From: a virus | DNA: 29,268 nt | IMG/VR virus record: IMGVR_UViG_3300032893_001567 | Location: 1 to 29,268 of that record | Reading direction: 5' to 3' (one strand) | Part shown: in pieces, positions 8,593 through 26,030 of the stretch | Layout: every line of letters begins with the position of its first letter | How positions within the stretch are numbered: the stretch's first letter is position 1 | The notes under the pieces: model-generated | Seen by the model: only the letters and a program-made list of their open reading frames with translations | The model's database searches: none | What the model was told of the DNA's origin: nothing | Made by a program: the position numbers and the translations under genes

Positions 8593-11382
8593 TCACACGA
8601 CCCTCGAAACTCCATCCTCTTTCACAACAGAAACCGAACGGGCATCAGAAAGCTCACTGAGGATTGCCGGGTTATGTGTCGTCAGGAGAATTGTTCCAAA
8701 CCTCGACACAACCTTTTTCAAACCACGCGCGAAGGCCCTTGCAGATGTAGAGTCCAGACCATCGCCCGGCTCATCCAAAATCAAGATGTTCGTCTTCGGT
8801 GCAACCGACCTCACAGCGAAAGAAGTGATCAACGAAGCCATTTTCATCTCTCCCTCCGATTGATCCTCAACATTCTCTCCACCATGAGCATTCACCACAG
8901 ATACATCCAATCTTCCTTCCGTATCCACTTCGAACCGAACGTGGATTTCACTCTGTGCGAAAAGTTCGCTGTATTCCTCCGCTGCCCTATTCAACTCAGG
9001 ACAGATCTGTGCGTTGAGATAGGCGGGGAGACCATCGCGCCGGAAAACAATCATTGCGTATTTTAATACACTCAGCCATTTGCCGATCTTCTTCTTCTTT
9101 CCTTCCAGCTGTGTAATCTTTTCTTTCAGACCCCTCAGCTTGTCACGCATGACAGAAAGCACCTTCTCGTTCCTCTCGTGTTGTTCCATCTTCAGACGAG
9201 CTGATTCATATTCAAGGGAAGCCGAGCCGACCTCATCTTCCAAAGCCGTATTCCTTTCCCACTTAGCCTGCAAAGTCAATAGTCTGTCTCTCTCGGCTAC
9301 TGAATCCTGAGCAACGCTCCTATCAGTCTTGATCTGACTGGAAAGGGCTTCGATTTCGGCTTTCGTTGGGCCAATCTGTTTCTGGATATAGTCCGCGCTT
9401 ACTTCCTGTCCGCACCTAGGACATGTTCCTTCCAGATTTCTGTACTTCGCCAAGCGAGTCCTCAACTCCTCCAACTGCGATTCCGACACAGCCAGCTTCC
9501 TCTCGGATTGAATCTGCTGCTTGCGGTTGTCCAACATCTGCTGTCTTATGCCTTCAAGCTTCAACGAAGCCTTTTCCTGCCATTCCTTCAATTCCGCATT
9601 CTTCTGACGGTATAGACCCTTTTTCCGGCGGTAAATTTCCGCTATAGAGCCGTTTAGAGCCATTATTTTCTTTGTTTGGGATATTGTGTCGATTAGGGAG
9701 TTTCTTTCGTTTGTGAGCGCCCCCAACGACGCAGAAATCAGGGTATAGCGCTCGTCAAAGTCCTGTTTTTGGGAATTCACAGATTTCTGTGCCCGTTCAA
9801 ACCTCTCGAGGTTCTGGATCTTGGCAAGAAAGCCTTTTCTCTCTGCCTCCGTTCCGGTCAGCATCAGATGCGACTTCGCCTGATCGACGTAGATCGCATT
9901 CGAAAGAGTCTCCCACGTATATCCAGTAATCTGTTCAATGAGCTTCTGTGTGTTCTCCGGTCTGTTGCCCGACTCAATGATCTCTCCCGACACCTTTAGG
10001 ACCAGATCCTTCGGCTGACGAGATCGGAGGATTGAGCACGCTCTACCTTGTGAATCCAGAAACCAGATCTTGACATACGAGTTCAGTTTCTTATCCGCAC
10101 CGCGACGAATCCAGTGATCATGTTTCTGATCCTTGAACGTCTGTCCGGAATGAGCAACTGCCACAGGTTGTAAGAAGGAAGTTTTGCCTGAGCCGTTTGA
10201 CCTCCCGCCCCAATCCTTGTTCAATCCAGAGACAACACATAGACCAGGTTCAAAATCGAACTTCAGCTTTTCATAACTGAGGAAGTTTTCCGCAGTGAAC
10301 CCTTTGAAGGTCAGCTCCCCGTTCTCCCTTTGTAGGCCCCCCGCTTGTTCGAGCTGGTCGATAAGGAACTTTTGGATTTTCTTTTCATAGACACGGAGCT
10401 CATCAGGGATAGTTTCCGCCACGTACAGTCGTATCTTCTTTTCGTCCGGATAAGTTGCCCTAATCTTTTTAGAAGATCGTCCTGCTTCTTTAAACTCAGG
10501 GACAACATGAGTGATGGCTCCCTCAAAATTCTTTCTAGCCGCAGTTTCTGCTTCCTCAAGCTTCTCTCTAATCTGATGAATTCCCTCAACAGGGACCTTG
10601 ACTCTGATATGCGAACCATTCCAATCCTCCGGCTTCGATTCCTCAAATCCCGGCCATGACGGATCGTACCAGCCCGGAATCTTTGAACGAACTCTTGTCA
10701 CGCTCTTTTCATCCAGATCAACTACAAGATAGCCTTTCTTCTGGTTCGCTTCGCCCCAGTCCGTGGCAAATGGACTTCCGCAGTACCAAACGTTCCTTTC
10801 CACTTTCTGCTGGAGGTGATAGTGCCCGCCGATACAGTATAAATATCGTCCCGCACACAAATCATCAACACATATGGCCGCGTCATCCGCCCTCGTGAGA
10901 ACGTTGTACTTAGCCCCCCGTAGTTCTGAATGAAAGATGAGCACACAGTTTGCAGCAGCAGGATTCCTTGCAAGCTCACGGGCTTCCGTTCGAAGAAGCT
11001 GTGGAGAATTTCTGAAAGGTAAGATCGCAAGAACCCGTCTGTCTCGAATGTCAATATAAGTTGGCTCGTCATAAGCAAGAGCCCCTGCCTTTCTAAGAAC
11101 AGGTAACCAGTTTTGCTTGTCGACATGCATTCCTACGCGGTCATGATTTCCCAAACAAACAACAACCACCAATCCTTGCTTCCGCCACCTCGCGATAGTC
11201 CGCAACCAGAAGTTCACCACACGGACATCCACCGGATTGTAGACGTGCTTTAAGTCCCCTGCCAGAACAAGAACCTCGATTCCGTGTTGACTGCACGTCC
11301 GGGAGACTTCTTTGGCTGCGTGCTTGCACAAATCGAGGTTCTCATAATCTGCTTGCCAATCTGATGTGACAAGAATTTTCAT
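8593..11382 (-). CDS. Single-chain SbcD-SbcC (Mre11-Rad50, gp47-gp46) nuclease/ATPase fusion
   Basis: A 929-residue fusion. Residues 1-340 carry the SbcD/Mre11 phosphoesterase motifs: SDWQ (D8), LAGDLKH (D43), GNHD (79-81), FHSE (H151) and GGHYH (187-189). From about 357 the SbcC/Rad50 part begins: Walker A GRSNGSGKTS (K400), coiled coil, zinc hook CPRC (654-657), returning coil, a signature QSEGE (841-845) in place of LSGGE, Walker B ILILDEP (866-872) and D-loop GLDS. It would process DNA ends for recombination-dependent replication, as T4 gp46/47 does with UvsX and gp32, all of which have counterparts here. In most bacteria and T4 these are two adjacent genes; here one chain. The coils are short, about 130 residues each way. 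It starts directly after the SPFH stop. Confidence 0.95.
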   Translation of the reverse strand: MKILVTSDWQADYENLDLCKHAAKEVSRTCSQHGIEVLVLAGDLKHVYNPVDVRVVNFWLRTIARWRKQGLVVVVCLGNHDRVGMHVDKQNWLPVLRKAGALAYDEPTYIDIRDRRVLAILPFRNSPQLLRTEARELARNPAAANCVLIFHSELRGAKYNVLTRADDAAICVDDLCAGRYLYCIGGHYHLQQKVERNVWYCGSPFATDWGEANQKKGYLVVDLDEKSVTRVRSKIPGWYDPSWPGFEESKPEDWNGSHIRVKVPVEGIHQIREKLEEAETAARKNFEGAITHVVPEFKEAGRSSKKIRATYPDEKKIRLYVAETIPDELRVYEKKIQKFLIDQLEQAGGLQRENGELTFKGFTAENFLSYEKLKFDFEPGLCVVSGLNKDWGGRSNGSGKTSFLQPVAVAHSGQTFKDQKHDHWIRRGADKKLNSYVKIWFLDSQGRACSILRSRQPKDLVLKVSGEIIESGNRPENTQKLIEQITGYTWETLSNAIYVDQAKSHLMLTGTEAERKGFLAKIQNLERFERAQKSVNSQKQDFDERYTLISASLGALTNERNSLIDTISQTKKIMALNGSIAEIYRRKKGLYRQKNAELKEWQEKASLKLEGIRQQMLDNRKQQIQSERKLAVSESQLEELRTRLAKYRNLEGTCPRCGQEVSADYIQKQIGPTKAEIEALSSQIKTDRSVAQDSVAERDRLLTLQAKWERNTALEDEVGSASLEYESARLKMEQHERNEKVLSVMRDKLRGLKEKITQLEGKKKKIGKWLSVLKYAMIVFRRDGLPAYLNAQICPELNRAAEEYSELFAQSEIHVRFEVDTEGRLDVSVVNAHGGENVEDQSEGEMKMASLITSFAVRSVAPKTNILILDEPGDGLDSTSARAFARGLKKVVSRFGTILLTTHNPAILSELSDARSVSVVKEDGVSRVV

Positions 11383-14533: not shown

Positions 14534-14794
14534 TCATCCTCCAAATCGTTTGAACACATCCTGATCCAACTCCGTCCCGATCCAGATCACCCGCCTCTTA
14601 AAATCTTCGAGCACAAGCTTCGTCTGGTGCTCCACTATGTTTCTTTCAGCAATGGTCAGGTTAAGAGACAGAAACCAGCGCTTCAACTCTCGTGTCGCGT
14701 TCGCCGGAATGAATTCTTTTCTCGTCAACGAAGCCTTCAACACCCGAGACACCTTTGTACGAATCACACGCTCATTGAGAGAAGACTCAGACAT
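14534..14794 (-). CDS. Small basic helical protein (86 aa)
   Basis: The ATG at 14794 overlaps the recA stop and has GGAG six bases ahead; longer frames upstream lie within recA. Three helices are likely: ERVIRTKVSRVLKAS, then a long one beginning at NATRELKRWFLSLNLTIAER, then KLVLEDFKRRVIWIG. The short-long-short order with basic charge loosely recalls a histone-fold monomer, but this is only a visual pattern. It could equally be a recombinase accessory protein. Confidence 0.5.
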   Translation of the reverse strand: MSESSLNERVIRTKVSRVLKASLTRKEFIPANATRELKRWFLSLNLTIAERNIVEHQTKLVLEDFKRRVIWIGTELDQDVFKRFGG

Positions 14795-15731
14795 TAGCTT
14801 CTCCATCCGACTTGATTTCATCCGCGTCGACGTACTTGATCCTTCCGTCAAAATACAACTTATAGCCACAGCTCAGACCTTCACAGGAACCACCACCTGC
14901 CTTGTTCTTCCAGTTCATCAAGAGACCTCTGATGCCGATGGACTTTCCTCCTTTCAAAATCTTCTTCGACTTCCTCTGCATACGAACACGAACGGAAGCG
15001 TAAAGCCGAACAGCGTTTCCGCCCGGAGTATATTCCGGATTACCCCAAGCCCCCGGTGCCGTTCTAAGCTGATTGATAAACATCATCATGATGTTGTAGT
15101 TCGCCACCAAGGCCACCCACTGCCTCAGAAAACCGGAAAGGAACGAAGCTAGCGAGACTTTCGTTCGCATATTCTGATCCTGAATACCGGCAGCTGCCTC
15201 TTCCTCAGTCAACATCGCAGCAATAGAATCAACACATACGAACATCCGTCCGTTTGGATTCTCCCGACCCTTCCGCCTAATCAACTCTTCAACTTCTGTA
15301 AGAAGCTCTTCGACCGTTTGCAATCTCCCTTCCTGTACTTTCTTCTTTTTCTTTTCCTTCTTTTTCAACACATCCGGATCTTCACTCACAACGATGCCTG
15401 GACGAAACAAATAAACCAGATTAGTATCCAGTCCGAGTTTTCTAGCCCACTCCTCATCCCAGCTGGATTCCAGATCCACCCAAATAACGATAGCTCCATC
15501 CTTCTGTGCCATTCCTGCGAGCTTTTTCAACGCTGCAGTCTTTCCTCTGGACTCCATACCTGATAGTTCGAAGATCTTTCCGTAAGGAATCCCGAGTTCC
15601 TCTGAACCAAACACACGATTCAAATACAAGTTTCCGGTATCAAGCCAATACTTCACTTTCTTTTCGAGAGTAAAATGTTTTAGCTTCTTCCGGATCAGAG
15701 CCATCTCTTCGTCAGGTGTCAACTGTTTCAT
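14787..15731 (-). CDS. RecA/UvsX-type recombinase
   Basis: A 314-residue RecA-fold ATPase. Walker A is GMESRGKT (58-65, usual GPESSGKT), the catalytic-Glu strand is IVIWVDLESSWD (81-92), Walker B is VCVDSIAAM (165-173), the L1/L2 region holds INQLRTAPGAWGNPEYTPGG (219-238), and there is the following AVRLYASVRVRM strand. The protein lacks the long C-terminal domain of bacterial RecA and has a Lys-rich insertion (123-131). It promotes strand exchange and recombination-dependent replication together with the SSB, SbcDC and possibly the UvsY-like protein of this window. TTGAGGGA lies 6 bases before the ATG, and its leader carries a 35-base tandem repeat array. Confidence 0.92.
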   Translation of the reverse strand: MKQLTPDEEMALIRKKLKHFTLEKKVKYWLDTGNLYLNRVFGSEELGIPYGKIFELSGMESRGKTAALKKLAGMAQKDGAIVIWVDLESSWDEEWARKLGLDTNLVYLFRPGIVVSEDPDVLKKKEKKKKKVQEGRLQTVEELLTEVEELIRRKGRENPNGRMFVCVDSIAAMLTEEEAAAGIQDQNMRTKVSLASFLSGFLRQWVALVANYNIMMMFINQLRTAPGAWGNPEYTPGGNAVRLYASVRVRMQRKSKKILKGGKSIGIRGLLMNWKNKAGGGSCEGLSCGYKLYFDGRIKYVDADEIKSDGEANV

Positions 15732-16035
15732 AAGCTTCCCTCAACAAAAATGCTTTGTCCATGCTCAATGAGTCCATCACCATGTATGTTCATTCTTTCG
15801 GTCTGGGTCCCTCAACTTGAATGTTCATTCATTCGCGCTGGGTCCTTCTTATCCGATGCTAATTCTCTTGAGGTGAGTCCCTCGGTGGCAATGCTAATTC
15901 TTACACTCTGAGTCCCTCAGGTTCAATGCTAATTCTCTCGAAGTGAGTCCCTCGGTTGCAATGCCAATTCATACACACCGGGTCCTTCGTTCTTCCTGTG
16001 CTTTGAATCAACCGCTATGAGTTTAATCCGGACCC
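15732..16035 (-). other. 304-base non-coding leader of recA
   Basis: The longest clear non-coding gap in the window. Reading toward recA it holds the second arm of a strong hairpin, a 30-base AT-balanced spacer, seven 35-base tandem repeats, and a short leader with the recA ribosome site. Only short chance frames are open (a 23-codon ATG frame across the repeats). No obvious sigma-70 promoter was recognised, so the recA promoter, if present, may be of a phage-specific type. Confidence 0.6.
15751..15995 (-). repeat. Seven tandem 35-bp bipartite repeats upstream of recA
   Basis: Six perfectly phased 35-base units begin at 15786, 15821, 15856, 15891, 15926 and 15961, and a degenerate seventh covers 15751-15785. 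On the coding strand each unit holds two conserved 10-base blocks, GAGGGACTCA and GAATTAGCAT (GAATGAACAT in the two units nearest recA), with 8 variable bases between and 7 after. The variable bases differ from unit to unit. The period is not a multiple of three. The regularity, about 3.3 helical turns, suits an array of protein sites or iterons. The recA ribosome site TTGAGGGA falls almost in phase with block one. Confidence 0.9.
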
Positions 16036-16053
16036 TTATTCAGGGTCCGGATT
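16025..16053 (-). terminator. Strong hairpin at end of SSB operon, stop codon in loop
   Basis: AATCCGGACCC, a 7-base loop TGAATAA, then GGGTCCGGATT make a perfect 11-bp stem. The TAA of the small acidic frame lies in the loop. The stem is followed by AAACTCATAG, without a T-run on this strand, so it may stabilise the 3' end of the ssb transcript or act as a weak terminator rather than a classic one. Confidence 0.6.
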
Positions 16054-16170
16054 GTCATTCGGATCGTCACCGATATCGAGCTGTGTCAAATCAGATTCAT
16101 CGATGTCGCCAGACTCCATCTCGCTCTCATCCGAAAGTGTATCGTCAACGACCTGCTCATTCGTCGTCAT
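16036..16170 (-). CDS. Acidic miniprotein or frameshifted SSB tail (44 aa)
   Basis: An ATG 14 bases before the end of the ssb gene, in the +1 frame, opens a frame of 44 codons. It reads MTTNEQVVDDTLSDESEMES and continues equally acidic to its TAA inside the hairpin loop. No ribosome site precedes the ATG, so it would need translational coupling to ssb or a +1 frameshift that would add an acidic end to the SSB. The composition (about one third Asp/Glu) and lack of stops argue that it is used. Which of the two is true cannot be read. Confidence 0.45.
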   Translation of the reverse strand: MTTNEQVVDDTLSDESEMESGDIDESDLTQLDIGDDPNDNPDPE

Positions 16171-17978: not shown

Positions 17979-18869
17979 CTAACCGAGCGAGGCCATCATT
18001 TCCTTTCTGAACTTATTCTCAAACTTCTGATTTGCCCGGCACCATTCCTCGATAAACTGTTCCGGTGGCTGTCCCTTATACTCCACCATCACACCCAATC
18101 TAAACCCGGCTTTTGCCTCCGCTTTGAGAGGCACAACCCACTTCACTTCCGGCCACCACTTCTTCACATAGACGAGAACCTCGTTCTCCATCAGCTGAAT
18201 AAACTGCCTATAAGTTTCCCGCATCAGTTTAAGCTGAGAGAACACATAGAACGCGTCGTGAATCTCCATCGAAGACTCTTGCAGCCTGTCGTACGTCTTG
18301 GGTTTTATCCCGATTATTGCCATTGCTATCAACATCAACTGATGGGCCGTTCCTTGGATTGGGCTATTGACCGCCTGATTTGCCCAGAATGTTCCGCGAG
18401 TATCATCGCCAGCCAACGCAATCTCTCTCAAGAATCCGAACAGGGTGGACACATACGAATTCTCTTCCGCAAACACGTGTTGTCGTTCGATAAATCTCGC
18501 CACACCCTTGAACTTGGAAAAGTAGGCATTGTACAACTCTTCCACTTCCTCAAATTTCATGGCAAACTTCTCACCACGTTTCGCCGCATCCGTCTTCAGC
18601 TTATTGTAAACCGATTCTGGCGTCATTCCGAAAATGATCCCGAAATGCAATTGTTTGATGGCAGTGCGAAGTGTTCTGTCCTTCTTGATCAACTCTTTTG
18701 GCTTGTTGGTCAACTCATGCCCGACGTCCCCGTGGATATCATCACCTTCCTGAATCAGTTTAATGAGCTTCTGGTCGCCGGACATCTGTGCAAGGACCCG
18801 AATTTCCAACTGCGAGTGATCCGCGCCCATGTACACTTTCAAATTACCGAACCTGTCAAGAAGGGTCAT
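17979..18869 (-). CDS. Family A DNA polymerase, C-terminal palm/fingers fragment
   Basis: A 296-residue fragment that begins just before motif A. It holds motif A GADHSQLEIR (D17 is the catalytic Asp), the O-helix RTAIKQLHFGIIFG (R68, K72, F76; F80 stands where Tyr is usual), the QAVNSPIQGTAHQL helix, and motif C EIHDAFYVF (H204, D205), where the usual Glu after Asp is Ala. It lacks the thumb and exonuclease, which are on the gene at 19639-21534; together they make one complete polymerase. F76 at the Taq F667 position is the wild-type discriminating residue. The start is a TAATG overlap with the gene between. The two chains must associate to be active. Confidence 0.92.
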   Translation of the reverse strand: MTLLDRFGNLKVYMGADHSQLEIRVLAQMSGDQKLIKLIQEGDDIHGDVGHELTNKPKELIKKDRTLRTAIKQLHFGIIFGMTPESVYNKLKTDAAKRGEKFAMKFEEVEELYNAYFSKFKGVARFIERQHVFAEENSYVSTLFGFLREIALAGDDTRGTFWANQAVNSPIQGTAHQLMLIAMAIIGIKPKTYDRLQESSMEIHDAFYVFSQLKLMRETYRQFIQLMENEVLVYVKKWWPEVKWVVPLKAEAKAGFRLGVMVEYKGQPPEQFIEEWCRANQKFENKFRKEMMASLG

Positions 18870-19351
18870 TACCGTCCCTCTCCATCCAGTAGAGAGATCG
18901 CATCGAAGAACGTATCAGGCTGCCTTCCACCGGGCCATTCTCTCATGCAAAGGCGATCTTCAAACTCATCAACAGTCTCCACAGTAAGGTGAAAGGCACT
19001 GCACATTCCTTGGAATAGGAGGAAAGCCGAATGTCTCTCAATAATACCCGGATGTCTGTAGGCTACGACTTCCAGTGCATGCATCAGATGAGAGTAGAAA
19101 TGCTGCGTACAGAATTCGAGTTCCTTTGCCAACGGTCCCTTTTCCACCATTACAGGAAGATCATTGACGTCAGTCATAAACTCCTTCACATTGTCCGGAT
19201 TCCCCGGCCTGAAGACAATGCCTCTCAACCAGCGTTGGACCTTCTTCACATTCGGACAGACATGAGTATCCGGGCCTCTCAGTCCAAGAACAAGCGTTGA
19301 CTGCATACGAATGGGGATTTCTTCCAACCAAGATTGAAGTACGCTAGGCAT
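18869..19351 (-). CDS. Conserved-looking phage protein of unknown function (160 aa), between polymerase halves
   Basis: Unrecognised function. It is helical, starting MPSVLQSWLEEIPIRMQSTL, with LGLRGPDTH near 22-30, a proline-rich loop (FRPGNPDNV), and a His-rich helix (CTQHFYSHLMHALEVVAYRH). The style is that of widespread phage early proteins. It has its own ribosome site (AGGAGAGAATAGG), overlaps the downstream polymerase fragment by one base, and begins one base after the zinc-protein gene. No nuclease, intein or intron motif is seen, so it does not look like a splicing element. Confidence 0.6.
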   Translation of the reverse strand: MPSVLQSWLEEIPIRMQSTLVLGLRGPDTHVCPNVKKVQRWLRGIVFRPGNPDNVKEFMTDVNDLPVMVEKGPLAKELEFCTQHFYSHLMHALEVVAYRHPGIIERHSAFLLFQGMCSAFHLTVETVDEFEDRLCMREWPGGRQPDTFFDAISLLDGEGR

Positions 19352-19352
19352 C

Positions 19353-19652
19353 CTATTCTCTCCTTAACCACCAGAAGTATTTCTCTGCTTCCTCATGTCG
19401 CTTCTTCCACAACGATCGCAAGCCCTCAACACCCCCATGATCGACAAAACACTTTCGACAAGTGAGAGGATTCCCTCCCGGGATATCCGGAATAGGATTG
19501 GTCCAAATCATACGAAACTCTGAACCAACTGTAAATCTTCCGCCACAGAAGTAGCAACGAAAGTACTTTCCGTTTGCGCCGCCGCTCCAAGGTAGCTTAA
19601 CGTCCTTCGCTGTCACTCTGACAAACTCTTTCATAAAATCACCGATCGCCAT
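19353..19652 (-). CDS. Zinc-ribbon-like small protein (99 aa), between polymerase halves
   Basis: Two CxxC pairs, CYFC and CRKC, about 33 residues apart, with a His shortly after, give a plausible zinc ribbon; a basic helix with aromatic residues ends the chain (KYFWWLRRE). GGAGGG precedes the ATG, which overlaps the upstream polymerase fragment by 14 bases. It may be a nucleic-acid-binding partner of the polymerase, or unrelated. No HNH motif is visible despite the Cys pairs. Confidence 0.6.
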   Translation of the reverse strand: MAIGDFMKEFVRVTAKDVKLPWSGGANGKYFRCYFCGGRFTVGSEFRMIWTNPIPDIPGGNPLTCRKCFVDHGGVEGLRSLWKKRHEEAEKYFWWLRRE

Positions 19653-21534
19653 TTTCCACCCTCCATGCTTTATACAAATCTCTCCATCTCAAATCACTAA
19701 CCAACAGACATTCAATTTCTTCCGCACCATGGATGTTCTGTAGATTAACGATTCCTTTTTCGGTCTTGTTTCCTCGCTCACCTCCGGAACGAAGACGACA
19801 GGTGATTGTTCCAGTCAGATGCCATTTCGTTCTGACTCTTCCGCCATGCAAATCCGCCGACTTCCTGTAGCCGTCCATATAGGTAGATTTCTTCTTCGAC
19901 ATCTGTCTGTACTCAGTCACCAATCCCGGGAACTCATGGAAGTCGGATAGAATCGCCATCGACTCTTTCCGCGTAGACCGAGGAAACTCCTTGAGCCACT
20001 TCTGATCTAGATGCTTGCCTAGCCGCAAGTCATCATAAATTACTCGCGCCACATCTTGTGGCTTATTAGGATTGAATTTGTCATCCTTGGCGATAGCCCT
20101 GATTTGTCCCAACAGCTTCTCCAGACGAACAGGGATCCAGCGCTCCAGCATATCCGCATGTTTGTAGTCTAGCCAAGGCCCGTGCTCTTCCATGCGTGCC
20201 AATACAGGCGAAACATACATCAAGCACCTTAACAATGCCTCATTCACCCGACCCTTGTTCGAAATCTGAATTCTCTTCGTCAGATCACAGTCCGCTCCGT
20301 TGTATACGACGATGACCTTCATCGGAATTTCATAGAAATTCACCAGCTTCGTTTTCTCATCACGATAAGGATCGAGAATCCCTTTGTACCCTGCAAACTC
20401 TCTAAACCGGATGTCGGCTGTTGCCTCCAGACCATAGGCACGCCGACCTGAGAATCTCAAATACTCGGAGAGCATCGTATCATGCACAAACCCTTTGACC
20501 ACAATGCCGAGCAGCTTCTTCAATTTCCAAACATCATAAGCACCGTACTGGAAGGCTTTGAGAATTTCGGGATCTTCCAGAATCCTTTTCAGGTAAGCTA
20601 TTCTCTTCGACAGAATCCGATTCTTTAGCTTCAGATCCTTATGGCGAAGGAACACACCGCGAGAGATCCCTTTCTTCCAACAAAATCCAACATAGACAAC
20701 TACATTCTCGCCGTTCTCGTCCTTGCCATCCTCGATGTCGACAGAAATCAAAATTCCTTTTTTGGCAGCGGCAAGAATCGGATTGAGAATTTCCTGTTCG
20801 AAGTCCAACGTCCTTACAGACTTATAATCCATCGAACGGATGTAGGAAAACTTTCCTCCAGTTCCCTTTATCTTTGATACAGCTATCCTGATTGCCTCCT
20901 TGAACTCATCCAACTTTGAGCGAGGCGCCCCTCTAAGGAAATAACTGGGATGGTAAGTCAGGATAACCCATGCCTTGAGTCTTTCGGAGTAGAACGTCTT
21001 CTGTTCTTTTCTGTACTCACCCTTCAATAAGGCCTTGGCCGCCACTTGCCCGAATACCAGATGAACCTTTGTCCTACCACTCACCTTTTCCAAGGCCTCT
21101 TCGGTATAGATGGAGCAGCATTTCAACTCTTCCTTGTTCGGCGTATGACGAGGCGTCCACTGTCCCTCTTCATTCACATCCACCGGGAAACATCTAACCA
21201 CATTCTGGATGTCACAATCCTTCCTGTAAAGCCCCGACTCCGCTGCATGCTCCCATAGGAATTGGCCAGCATCACCCACAAGCTCCCGTCCCTCTCTGTT
21301 CTCATTGGATCCGGGACTCTGTGCCCAGACCATGACCGGTTTTCCCTGAAGCTTATCCAGATTCTTAATCTTCTTTAAGCCACGAACCTTATTCAAGGGA
21401 CAAAAATCACAACCTCTGTTCTCGTCTTTCTTCTTGGCGGTTTGCTTCTTTACAGGCTTCTTGTCACGTGCCGTCCGAACGGGCTTAAATTCTTTCGACT
21501 CGTTGTCGAAATCTAGAATATTCTGGTACGCCAT
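19639..21534 (-). CDS. UDG-like domain fused to family A DNA polymerase N-terminal fragment
   Basis: A 631-residue protein. Residues 40-225 look like a family 4/5 uracil-DNA glycosylase with a probable 4Fe-4S site (C42, C45, C115 and C139 or C140), the loop AQSPGSNENREG (71-82) where GEAPG is usual, and HPSYFLR (195-201). Residues 260-425 are a DnaQ-like 3'-5' exonuclease: VDIED (265-269), FQYGAYD (328-334) and YNGADCD (411-417). From about 440 the polymerase thumb begins and reaches TGTITCRLRS (574-583) and NLQNIH (597-602), then the protein stops. Palm and fingers follow on a separate gene. UDG-PolA fusions are known in SPO1-like phages. The DNA entry and proofreading part of the replicative polymerase. 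Confidence 0.9.
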   Translation of the reverse strand: MAYQNILDFDNESKEFKPVRTARDKKPVKKQTAKKKDENRGCDFCPLNKVRGLKKIKNLDKLQGKPVMVWAQSPGSNENREGRELVGDAGQFLWEHAAESGLYRKDCDIQNVVRCFPVDVNEEGQWTPRHTPNKEELKCCSIYTEEALEKVSGRTKVHLVFGQVAAKALLKGEYRKEQKTFYSERLKAWVILTYHPSYFLRGAPRSKLDEFKEAIRIAVSKIKGTGGKFSYIRSMDYKSVRTLDFEQEILNPILAAAKKGILISVDIEDGKDENGENVVVYVGFCWKKGISRGVFLRHKDLKLKNRILSKRIAYLKRILEDPEILKAFQYGAYDVWKLKKLLGIVVKGFVHDTMLSEYLRFSGRRAYGLEATADIRFREFAGYKGILDPYRDEKTKLVNFYEIPMKVIVVYNGADCDLTKRIQISNKGRVNEALLRCLMYVSPVLARMEEHGPWLDYKHADMLERWIPVRLEKLLGQIRAIAKDDKFNPNKPQDVARVIYDDLRLGKHLDQKWLKEFPRSTRKESMAILSDFHEFPGLVTEYRQMSKKKSTYMDGYRKSADLHGGRVRTKWHLTGTITCRLRSGGERGNKTEKGIVNLQNIHGAEEIECLLVSDLRWRDLYKAWRVENGDR

Positions 21535-23370: not shown

Positions 23371-24000
23371 TCATCGGTCACCTCTCACAGCAGCGAGAAA
23401 CTCCGACTTAGCTTCCGGCTTGGTCCGAAACACCCCTTCGATAGCCGTCGTCGTGGTTACCGCCTTCTTCTTCACACCACGCATTTCCATGCAGAGGTGC
23501 CGACCCTTGATGAGCACCGCAACACCGACAGGCGCCAATCCTTTCTGAATGGTTGCTGCGATTTCCTGAGTCGTGTCTTCCTGCAGTGCCGGCTTCTTGG
23601 CAATCAACTCAGCGATTCGGGCCAACTTCGAAAGCCCCAGAACCTTCTTCTTGGGGATATAAGAAATCCACACCCACAACTGCACAGGCAACAGATGATG
23701 AGGACACATCGACCACACTTCAACCGGGCCGACGGTAATCATTTCGTCAGACTTGGCAGGAAAGGTCTTCGAGAGAATTTTGTTTACTTGGTCACCATTG
23801 TCGAAGAGCCCATCAAAGATTTCCGAATAGGCTCGCGACACCCGTTCAGGAGTCTCTTCGAAGTTCGGCCCGTGGCGAAGGATTTTTCCGGTCCACCTCT
23901 GAAGTGAATTGAGAATGTCAGCAACTGACCTCTTCACATCGTGCTCAAATTCGAACTTCGAGTTCTTTCTCACTTCGTCTGTCACATCGTGCTTTTTCAT
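23371..24000 (-). CDS. folE: GTP cyclohydrolase I (FolE)
   Basis: A 209-residue FolE; the enzyme turns GTP into dihydroneopterin triphosphate, the first step both of folate and of queuosine/7-deazaguanine synthesis. Visible are ETPERVSRAY (48-57), the zinc site SMCPHHLLPV (97-106; C99, H101, H102) with the second Cys in RHLCMEMRGV (168-175; C170), GLSKLARI (122-129), and TTTTAIEGVF (182-191). The usual MCEHH is MCPHH: the Glu next to the first zinc Cys is Pro. Beside a DpdA-like gene this fits DNA hypermodification. The expected partners queC, queD and queE are not in the window; the host could supply them. Confidence 0.92.
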   Translation of the reverse strand: MKKHDVTDEVRKNSKFEFEHDVKRSVADILNSLQRWTGKILRHGPNFEETPERVSRAYSEIFDGLFDNGDQVNKILSKTFPAKSDEMITVGPVEVWSMCPHHLLPVQLWVWISYIPKKKVLGLSKLARIAELIAKKPALQEDTTQEIAATIQKGLAPVGVAVLIKGRHLCMEMRGVKKKAVTTTTAIEGVFRTKPEAKSEFLAAVRGDR

Positions 24001-24042: not shown

Positions 24043-25050
24043 TTAAAGCAAAGACTGATACCGAACATGAGTATCTTGTATCTGTTTTTTGAACTGATGC
24101 AAGTGAGAAAAGAGCCAACCATTGTACACATGACGGTAAGTCACAGATTTTCTCAGCAGATCAAAGTCGAAACCTCGACGCTCAACCTGTTCCTGAATTG
24201 CCACTTGTGCCCCTTTTGCCAATGTCGAAAAAGAATTCGGGTTCGTTGCCGATTCCATAGACACATGACAAGTCCCCATTGTGTTCTTACCCTCGTCCAC
24301 CGTGTAGATACATCCATAAGAGCTTGTACGTGACCAACTCGACGAGTCCACACTCCACCACGGATATGCGAACATCGTTGAAAGGCTGGTCATAGCGAAA
24401 CCATGCAACTTCACGTCTTTGTACTGGCCCACAAGCTTGAACAAGTTGTCCAAGTAAAATCTTAAGTTCTTGTGGCTGGAACGAACTCCCAGCAGGGGCG
24501 AGATGCCGATTCGTTTGTATCCAGCATCCAGGTACCTTTTCATCCAATCCAAAGACTGATCCCCATGATACACCGGAGTCGGCTTCAATCCCTCCTTCTC
24601 CAATCTTTTTGTTATCTTCCATACAAGCTCCACATCGCGAATGTAGTCAAACGTTACATAAAAGTCCCACTCCTTCGCTCTCTTCCGGCAGAACTCCATG
24701 TAAGCTGAGATTGTCTTTTCCCTTAAAGCATCCACATTCGGAATTTCCTGATGCTTGAACAGGAACATCTGAAACGAGAACGCTCCGCTGTCCATCATGA
24801 TGTGATTCCCGCGCTCGACGTTTAGCTGATAACCCTCCCACGCACGCGGAGTCCAATAGATCATCTCGGGATGCAAATACACAAACGAACAGCATCTGTA
24901 GCGAACGCCCGTGCAATCCAGAAACTCTTTTTCCAACTCCCTTGTATGCACGATAGAGTGAGAAAGATATACGATCGGCTTCTCCGAAGACTGTAGAACC
25001 AACTTCGGTACCTTGCCATTCGCAAGTTTCAGCTTAGGTTCTTTTTTCAT
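24043..25050 (-). CDS. dpdA: DpdA-like tRNA/DNA transglycosylase (TGT superfamily)
   Basis: A 335-residue TIM-barrel protein of the TGT superfamily. Diagnostic phrases are IMMDSGAFSF (84-93, cf. DSGGFQ of TGT), VTFDYIRD (132-139) and HGFAMTSLSTMFAYPWWSVD (216-235) followed by SSSW, the nucleophile Asp being probably D235. No zinc CxCxxC-His cluster of classical TGT is present, as in phage DpdA proteins. DpdA swaps guanine in DNA for a 7-deazaguanine base, protecting against restriction. With FolE next to it the pathway is strongly suggested. TAATG overlap with the gene upstream; FolE follows after 42 bases with AGGAG. Confidence 0.82.
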   Translation of the reverse strand: MKKEPKLKLANGKVPKLVLQSSEKPIVYLSHSIVHTRELEKEFLDCTGVRYRCCSFVYLHPEMIYWTPRAWEGYQLNVERGNHIMMDSGAFSFQMFLFKHQEIPNVDALREKTISAYMEFCRKRAKEWDFYVTFDYIRDVELVWKITKRLEKEGLKPTPVYHGDQSLDWMKRYLDAGYKRIGISPLLGVRSSHKNLRFYLDNLFKLVGQYKDVKLHGFAMTSLSTMFAYPWWSVDSSSWSRTSSYGCIYTVDEGKNTMGTCHVSMESATNPNSFSTLAKGAQVAIQEQVERRGFDFDLLRKSVTYRHVYNGWLFSHLHQFKKQIQDTHVRYQSLL

Positions 25051-25325: not shown

Positions 25326-25494
25326 CCGTCGTTTCCTTTCCAAAGCAGATTTTCGCATTTCGTGCCATCCTTTGATAGCAAGCTGTACAAATTCCTGTTT
25401 CTGCAACATACAAACATTTTTCAATGTCTTCGATTGTAAACTTGTCGTTGCAGAGAAGACACCAGAGAAGTTCCTTCTTCTCGATCAGACCCAT
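25192..25494 (-). CDS. Cys-rich zinc-binding-type protein (100 aa)
   Basis: It has C-x2-C (CLLC), a later CTAC, CFG and CKEFCPDRKAC: eight Cys in pairs, implying one or two zinc sites, ending in a basic stretch (VQRRKRKVARGE). The ATG at 25494 has AGGAG six bases upstream; a further upstream ATG would overlap the sigma-like gene by 37 bases. It is downstream of the sigma-like gene and may be a transcription-related factor, which is only an inference from location. Confidence 0.55.
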   Translation of the reverse strand: MGLIEKKELLWCLLCNDKFTIEDIEKCLYVAETGICTACYQRMARNAKICFGKETTDERYGYDEETLECKEFCPDRKACREFVQRRKRKVARGEVSGTGD

Positions 25495-26030
25495 ACCCCA
25501 CTCCTGAGCAAGAGGCGACAATCACTCGGAGTCAATCGATGGATTCTTGCAAGCCGGTAGAATTCGGAAGTGAGGGCACGACCATTCACACCCCAACGAG
25601 GTGCCCGTCTATCAGGACCAAACCATCTGCGTATTTCATCCTTAAGATCAGGAGAAGCCTTCTTGAATACCACTTCTAACGCTTCCCGTGCTTCGATGAG
25701 ATCAAACAACTTCTCATCGACATGAAGGTGTCCAACATCTTCCAGATCCTTGCGCCATCCAAACCGTTTTTTATTCTGTTGTGCCAGAGTGAAGTTTAAC
25801 ATGTGACTGTTTACGGTACAATACAAAAACGTACTGACAGAACCTCGTTTGGCATTGTGATTCCTTCCAACGAAGCTCATAACATGCAATACTGCCTCAG
25901 CGATCATGTCTTCCGGGTCAACCCACATCTTTGTTGAAGCCGGAAGTGTACGCCAATACTGCCATGCGATTTTCCGTGCCATATCCTTGTACTGCTCATA
26001 CAAAGCAAGCCTGCGGATTCTGGGTGTCAT
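25485..26030 (-). CDS. Sigma-70 region-2-like RNA polymerase sigma factor
   Basis: A 181-residue protein. Residues 10-90 look like sigma region 2: YKDMARKIAWQYW, then DPEDMIAEAVLHVMSFVGR (38-56), then GSVSTFLYCTVNSHMLNF (63-80), the region that binds the core polymerase and melts the -10. A region-4-like HTH is not clear; the last 50 residues (RALTSEFYRLARIHRLTPSD) may replace it. It likely switches host RNA polymerase to phage promoters. The ATG lacks a good ribosome site (GGAG is 12 bases off), so translation may be weak. A promoter-like sequence precedes the gene. Confidence 0.7.
   Translation of the reverse strand: MTPRIRRLALYEQYKDMARKIAWQYWRTLPASTKMWVDPEDMIAEAVLHVMSFVGRNHNAKRGSVSTFLYCTVNSHMLNFTLAQQNKKRFGWRKDLEDVGHLHVDEKLFDLIEAREALEVVFKKASPDLKDEIRRWFGPDRRAPRWGVNGRALTSEFYRLARIHRLTPSDCRLLLRSGVWV

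What the first reader, a model, noticed from the sequence alone, without database searches (positions are those of the whole stretch)
15751..15995. Array of seven 35-bp bipartite tandem repeats in front of recA
Two 10-base blocks (GAGGGACTCA, GAATTAGCAT) repeat every 35 bases exactly, while the spacers of 8 and 7 bases vary between units. This pattern means selection on both blocks and on the period. Candidates: iterons of a replication origin, an operator array, a set of phage-type promoters for the encoded sigma factor, or a repeated mRNA element; block one is SD-like and the true recA ribosome site lies almost in phase with it.
Basis: seen in the sequence. Interest (0 to 1): 0.8.

Follow-up and report, generated by a model that had tools for sequence, protein, structure and literature searches.

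The report
Direct-repeat array before phage recA
An uncultured phage carries, just before its recA gene, a private run of evenly spaced two-part DNA repeats that looks like a row of protein-binding sites; it is real and non-random, but no relative of it was found in the collections searched and what binds it is not known.

Summary
On the minus strand, 15988 to 15733, between ssb and recA/uvsX, two ten-base blocks (A = GANGGACYCR, B = GAATKRRCAT) alternate at an exact 35-bp period. Seven A and six B blocks are in register; a degenerate B7-A8 pair follows, shifted by 1 bp, and A8 is the recA ribosome site. Blocks are about 85% identical between units, spacers 30-43%. In the most recent duplicate pairs, blocks differ at 5/60 sites and spacers at 16/45 (p = 0.001), so selection on the blocks is supported. 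There is no consensus RNA fold and no coding frame. The array is absent from the rest of the contig, 15 related virus records, IMG/VR, and the phage and plasmid collections. In relatives ssb and recA are nearly adjacent, so the ~300-bp segment is a private gain. Best reading: a lineage-specific row of direct-repeat binding sites controlling recA, binder unknown. Sigma promoters are disfavoured; an origin and an RNA-level leader remain open. The three nearest relatives carry other intergenic arrays (GGYNN, 5-nt period) that match the recently described VIPR guide RNAs; this contig has none.

The parts
15733..15988 (-). Whole array: A1-B1 ... A7-B7-A8, 35-bp period
15979..15988 (-). A1 GAAGGACCCG
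15961..15970 (-). B1 GAATTGGCAT
15944..15953 (-). A2 GAGGGACTCA
15926..15935 (-). B2 GAATTAGCAT
15909..15918 (-). A3 GAGGGACTCA
15891..15900 (-). B3 GAATTAGCAT
15874..15883 (-). A4 GAGGGACTCA
15856..15865 (-). B4 GAATTAGCAT
15839..15848 (-). A5 GAAGGACCCA
15821..15830 (-). B5 GAATGAACAT
15804..15813 (-). A6 GAGGGACCCA
15786..15795 (-). B6 GAATGAACAT
15769..15778 (-). A7 GATGGACTCA
15750..15759 (-). B7 GACAAAGCAT, degenerate, 1 bp out of register
15733..15742 (-). A8 GAGGGAAGCT, degenerate; GAGGGA is the likely recA Shine-Dalgarno
16025..16053 (-). Perfect 12-bp inverted repeat, 5-nt loop, spanning the stop codon of the small ORF; no T run, so not a canonical terminator
14787..15731 (-). recA/uvsX recombinase, 314 aa
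16157..17233 (-). ssb (phrog_1192) with long acidic tail
16036..16170 (-). Small acidic ORF (about 44 aa) overlapping the ssb end; similar short acidic ORFs sit between ssb and recA in sister phages

Best explanation
The array is a lineage-specific row of eight (seven good, one degenerate) bipartite direct-repeat sites for a protein that binds double-stranded DNA, placed between ssb and recA. A subunit or pair of subunits would contact A and B of each unit, neighbours would fill the row cooperatively at a fixed 17-18 bp step, and the filled row would switch recA expression on or off, separating recA from the ssb gene it is joined to in relatives. Shown: position, blocks, period, block-versus-spacer contrast, absence in relatives, private gain of the segment. 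Inferred: that the ligand is a protein, that it reads DNA rather than RNA, and that recA is the gene controlled. The binder is unknown and may be encoded outside this 29-kb fragment or by the host.
For: Two blocks at 85-86% mean pairwise identity against 43% and 30% for the spacers. In the three most recent duplicate pairs the blocks differ at 5/60 and the spacers at 16/45 sites, Fisher p = 0.001. There is no indel in 12 consecutive spacers although these have diverged far, which fits a spacing constraint (inference). Sites are asymmetric, all in one orientation and confined to this intergenic gap. No conserved RNA structure. In relatives with the same gene order ssb and recA are a few to about 160 bp apart with no array, so a ~300-bp segment with an inverted repeat and the array was gained in front of recA.
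Against: No DNA-binding regulator other than the sigma-like gene was recognised among the window proteins scanned. The 35-bp step is 3.33 helical turns, so equivalent blocks do not lie on one face of the helix. Absence in every relative means that conservation between genomes cannot be shown; selection is inferred from contrast within the array only.
Confidence: 0.42

Rival explanations
1. Iterons of a replication origin: an initiator binds the repeats, melts nearby DNA and loads the replisome encoded in the same gene block.
For: Evenly spaced direct repeats inside the replication gene cluster. A 40-bp stretch at 15647, about 50-85 bp from the array, is among the most AT-rich of the window.
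Against: That AT-rich stretch is inside recA and equally AT-rich in L014, which has no array. No initiator gene was recognised and GC skew shows no turn here. Array GC (0.465) is near the window mean of 0.493. If it were the origin, all relatives would have to use another one.
Confidence: 0.2
2. RNA-level leader: each A block carries ANGGA, the core of CsrA/RsmA sites, and the last one covers the recA ribosome site, so a CsrA-like or other RNA-binding protein would load on the leader and block translation.
For: GANGGA in all eight A copies with the variable base exactly at N, spaced 35 nt, within the 10-55 nt used for cooperative CsrA binding (PMC6028588); A8 is the likely Shine-Dalgarno.
Against: B is equally conserved and has no ANGGA. 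The blocks are not displayed in conserved hairpins. No CsrA gene in the window or nine related records. ANGGA is common on this strand, 278 in 29 kb. RNA binding does not easily explain the exact 35-base spacing.
Confidence: 0.17
3. Leftover of tandem duplication of the recA leader with no present function.
For: Units group as duplicated dimers (1/3, 2/4) and a duplicated monomer (5/6). No copy was found outside this contig.
Against: Blocks and spacers diverged at very different rates (p = 0.001) and no indel interrupts the period from A1 to A7.
Confidence: 0.14
4. A set of promoters for the phage sigma-like factor.
For: A sigma-70 region 2-like protein is encoded at 25485-26030, though its Pfam score is just below the cut-off.
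Against: The gene is conserved in sisters, yet A/B pairs occur nowhere else in the window and only at control level in 15 related records. Six tandem promoters for one gene would be odd.
Confidence: 0.05
5. A repeat-coded guide RNA analogous to the GGYNN arrays of the sister phages, with the 7- and 8-base spacers as the variable code.
For: Conserved blocks alternate with variable segments; the three nearest relatives carry vrRNA-like arrays in other gaps and this contig has none.
Against: No GGYNN repeats and no 5-base periodicity (0.22); spacers track duplication history; no RAMP protein was identified.
Confidence: 0.02

Closest known systems
Iterons of phage T4 oriE (PMC3016281)
   Same: Evenly spaced direct repeats in a T4-like replication setting; role there also undefined
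   Different: T4 units are 12 nt and found in syntenic regions of close relatives; here the unit is 35 bp with two blocks and no relative has it
Iteron plasmid origins and operator arrays (general knowledge)
   Same: Asymmetric sites, one orientation, strict spacing, next to a gene of the pathway
   Different: No initiator or repressor gene identified; spacing is not a whole number of helical turns
CsrA-repressed leaders with several ANGGA sites (PMC6028588)
   Same: Several ANGGA, the last over the ribosome site
   Different: Second conserved block B, no conserved hairpins, no csrA gene found
T4 gene 32 leader autoregulation (PMC3014915)
   Same: Leader of a recombination/replication gene that reaches the ribosome site
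   Different: T4 uses a pseudoknot plus an A+U-rich tract; neither was seen here
VIPR vrRNA arrays (PMC13142463), pattern seen in the sister phages
   Same: Conserved blocks alternating with variable bases in an intergenic gap
   Different: 35-bp unit, not GGYNN; no 5-base period

Membership tests
Iteron-type replication origin | Tandem direct repeats of one orientation with strict spacing | tested here: met
Iteron-type replication origin | Adjacent AT-rich melting region specific to the site | tested here: inconclusive
   AT-rich stretch lies in recA coding and is shared by L014 without array
Iteron-type replication origin | Cognate initiator and origin activity | not testable with these tools
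   only 29 kb of a probably >100-kb genome; no initiator family seen
CsrA-regulated leader | Several ANGGA sites 10-55 nt apart, one over the ribosome site | tested here: met
CsrA-regulated leader | GGA displayed in hairpin loops (preferred, not absolute) | tested here: not met
CsrA-regulated leader | CsrA present in the host | not testable with these tools
   host unknown; no phage csrA
Promoter array of the encoded sigma factor | Same motif before other phage genes and in relatives with the same sigma | tested here: not met
VIPR vrRNA | 9-16 GGYNN pentanucleotide repeats | tested here: not met
Structured repeated RNA element | Conserved or covarying secondary structure | tested here: not met
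Protein-coding tandem repeat | Open frame through the array | tested here: not met
   35 is not a multiple of 3; no ORF of 60 aa or more lies in the array

The most novel reading that the evidence does not exclude
The array is transcribed as a repeat-coded RNA in which fixed blocks are bound by a protein and the 7- and 8-base spacers carry the specificity: a second kind of tandem-repeat code in a phage group whose other members carry VIPR-like GGYNN arrays.
Probability: 0.02. Interest if true: 0.85.

Novelty: new member of a known kind. Interest (0 to 1): 0.4.

Why it matters
If it is an operator or origin, it shows a phage rewiring its core recombination gene by growing a cis-acting array in a gap that its relatives keep nearly closed. 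The comparison also places VIPR-like arrays in the sister phages, which would tie an environmental phage group to a newly described RNA-guided system.

Tried and rejected
RNA hairpins and Rfam families: nothing. Sigma-70 promoters and terminators: chance level, and the hairpin at 16025-16053 has no T run. The blastn hits to Lu11 and PhiXhv-16 fall in the query part that holds the acidic ssb tail and were set aside as low-complexity (only the Lu11 record was opened; the alignments were not read). Eight IMG/VR contigs with three GGACYC at 35-bp spacing were inspected; none has block B or the array. vrRNA target search of the sister arrays against this window and relatives under the one-base skip rule: no better than a few shuffled codes. 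A 141-aa protein next to the largest L014 GGYNN array was folded as a possible Vipr, but the model is too poor to use (mean pLDDT 41). Relatives of a virus record cannot be drawn by the genome search. Palindromic reading of block A (GAG-N3-CTC): variants in A1, A5, A6 and A7 break it, so it was not kept.

Full report
What is there. The window is a 29,268-bp virus record, classed linear. Its main genes run on the minus strand and include a replication block: primase, 5' exonuclease, sigma-like factor, GTP cyclohydrolase, DNA polymerase A with a UDG domain, ssb, recA/uvsX, clamp loader and a fused SbcD-SbcC protein. The array fills the 304-bp gap between the small acidic ORF behind ssb and recA, the largest internal non-coding gap on my gene list.

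Anatomy. Reading along the minus strand from 15988, block A (GANGGACYCR), 8 bases, block B (GAATKRRCAT) and 7 bases repeat with a period of exactly 35. Seven A and six B blocks are in register. One base out of register follow B7 (GACAAAGCAT, 15759) and A8 (GAGGGAAGCT, 15742) with the same 7-base spacing; this pair ranks fourth among B-N7-A matches on the gene strand outside the main six. The GAGGGA of A8 is the likely recA ribosome site.

Is it more than chance? Period-35 identity is 0.60 against a maximum of 0.40 in shuffles. The closest unit pairs are 1/3, 2/4 and 5/6, each 28/35, which suggests duplication of a 70-bp dimer and of one monomer. Within these pairs blocks differ at 5 of 60 sites and spacers at 16 of 45 (Fisher p = 0.001). 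Over six units, blocks are 85-86% and spacers 43% and 30% identical. No spacer has gained or lost a base in the twelve steps from A1 to A7. I take this as selection on the blocks and probably on the spacing; the second part rests on inference about indel rates.

Relatives. A scan with the C-terminal polymerase part found nine syntenic loci; L012, L013 and L014 share 66-69% of it, the others 33-42%. A recA-profile scan added more. In L012-L014, L024-L029, L032 and L033, ssb and recA lie a few to about 160 bp apart with no array, and the period scan found no comparable array in any recA-family locus. A/B pairs occur only at control level in 15 whole related records. Blastn of the segment found nothing in phages or plasmids. 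The simplest account is a private gain of about 300 bp, made of a perfect 12-bp inverted repeat and the array, in front of recA.

Mechanism. The array has no consensus RNA structure, no significant folding of the leader once the separate inverted repeat is left out (z = -1.1), no Rfam match and no long reading frame. Both blocks are asymmetric and confined to this gap. Fixed spacing of both A-to-B and B-to-A fits a protein row on double-stranded DNA better than loose RNA sites. I therefore favour an operator-like array acting on recA, at 0.42. An iteron origin is the main rival: the setting is right, but the AT-rich neighbour is shared by L014, which lacks the array, and no initiator is seen. 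An RNA leader is the second rival: every A block holds ANGGA and the last covers the ribosome site, but B is unexplained, conserved hairpins are missing and no csrA gene is present in the records searched. Sigma promoters are disfavoured by absence of the motif elsewhere although the sigma-like gene is conserved.

Known kinds. T4 oriE also has evenly spaced direct repeats whose role is undefined (PMC3016281). T4 gp32 controls its own leader through a pseudoknot (PMC3014915), not seen here. By tested features this array is a new member of the broad kind 'direct-repeat cis array'; no narrower membership could be shown.

A side result. The three nearest relatives carry intergenic arrays of GGYNN pentanucleotides: L012 1112-1204, 6584-6701, 14290-14352; L013 1261-1323, 9177-9239; L014 5219-5336, 14644-14786, 14816-14953, 17297-17549. 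These match the vrRNA pattern of the VIPR systems described in a 2026 preprint (PMC13142463). The window and the other recA relatives have none at the same threshold. I did not identify a Vipr protein, and predicted targets were not found among the loci held, so the identification rests on the repeat pattern alone.

Limits. The fragment is perhaps a quarter of the genome, judged from relatives' records; the host is unknown, and nothing here tests binding, transcription or replication.

Noticed in passing
L012 1112-1204, 6584-6701, 14290-14352; L013 1261-1323, 9177-9239; L014 5219-5336, 14644-14786, 14816-14953, 17297-17549: Intergenic GGYNN pentanucleotide arrays (about 10-50 repeats) in the three nearest sister phages match the vrRNA pattern of VIPR systems (PMC13142463); several run into a GTGAGGGAAA-like ribosome site and start codon. 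No Vipr gene identified.
   Followed up: partly
L056-L175 (IMG/VR loci): An exact eight-repeat GGTNN pattern hits 120 or more IMG/VR stretches (scan stopped at its limit); L130 alone has 23 matches in 14.6 kb.
   Followed up: no
window 17979-21534: DNA polymerase A is split into two ORFs (UDG, exonuclease and N-terminal polymerase; C-terminal polymerase) with two small ORFs between; the sisters are split at the same place with partly different cargo, including a dCTP deaminase-like ORF by eye (L012 8888-9325).
   Followed up: partly
window 16036-16170; also L012, L013, L014, L024: A short acidic ORF overlaps or follows the ssb end before recA in this phage and its sisters, varying in length.
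   Followed up: partly
window 24043-25050 and 23371-24000: A TGT/DpdA-like protein by eye (no Pfam hit) next to GTP cyclohydrolase suggests 7-deazaguanine DNA modification; the former is 84% identical to L014, far above neighbouring genes, hinting at recent exchange.
   Followed up: no
window 8593-11382: SbcD and SbcC homologs are fused in one 929-aa protein, also in the sisters.
   Followed up: no
window 16025-16053: Perfect 12-bp inverted repeat spanning the stop codon of the small ORF, without a T run.
   Followed up: partly
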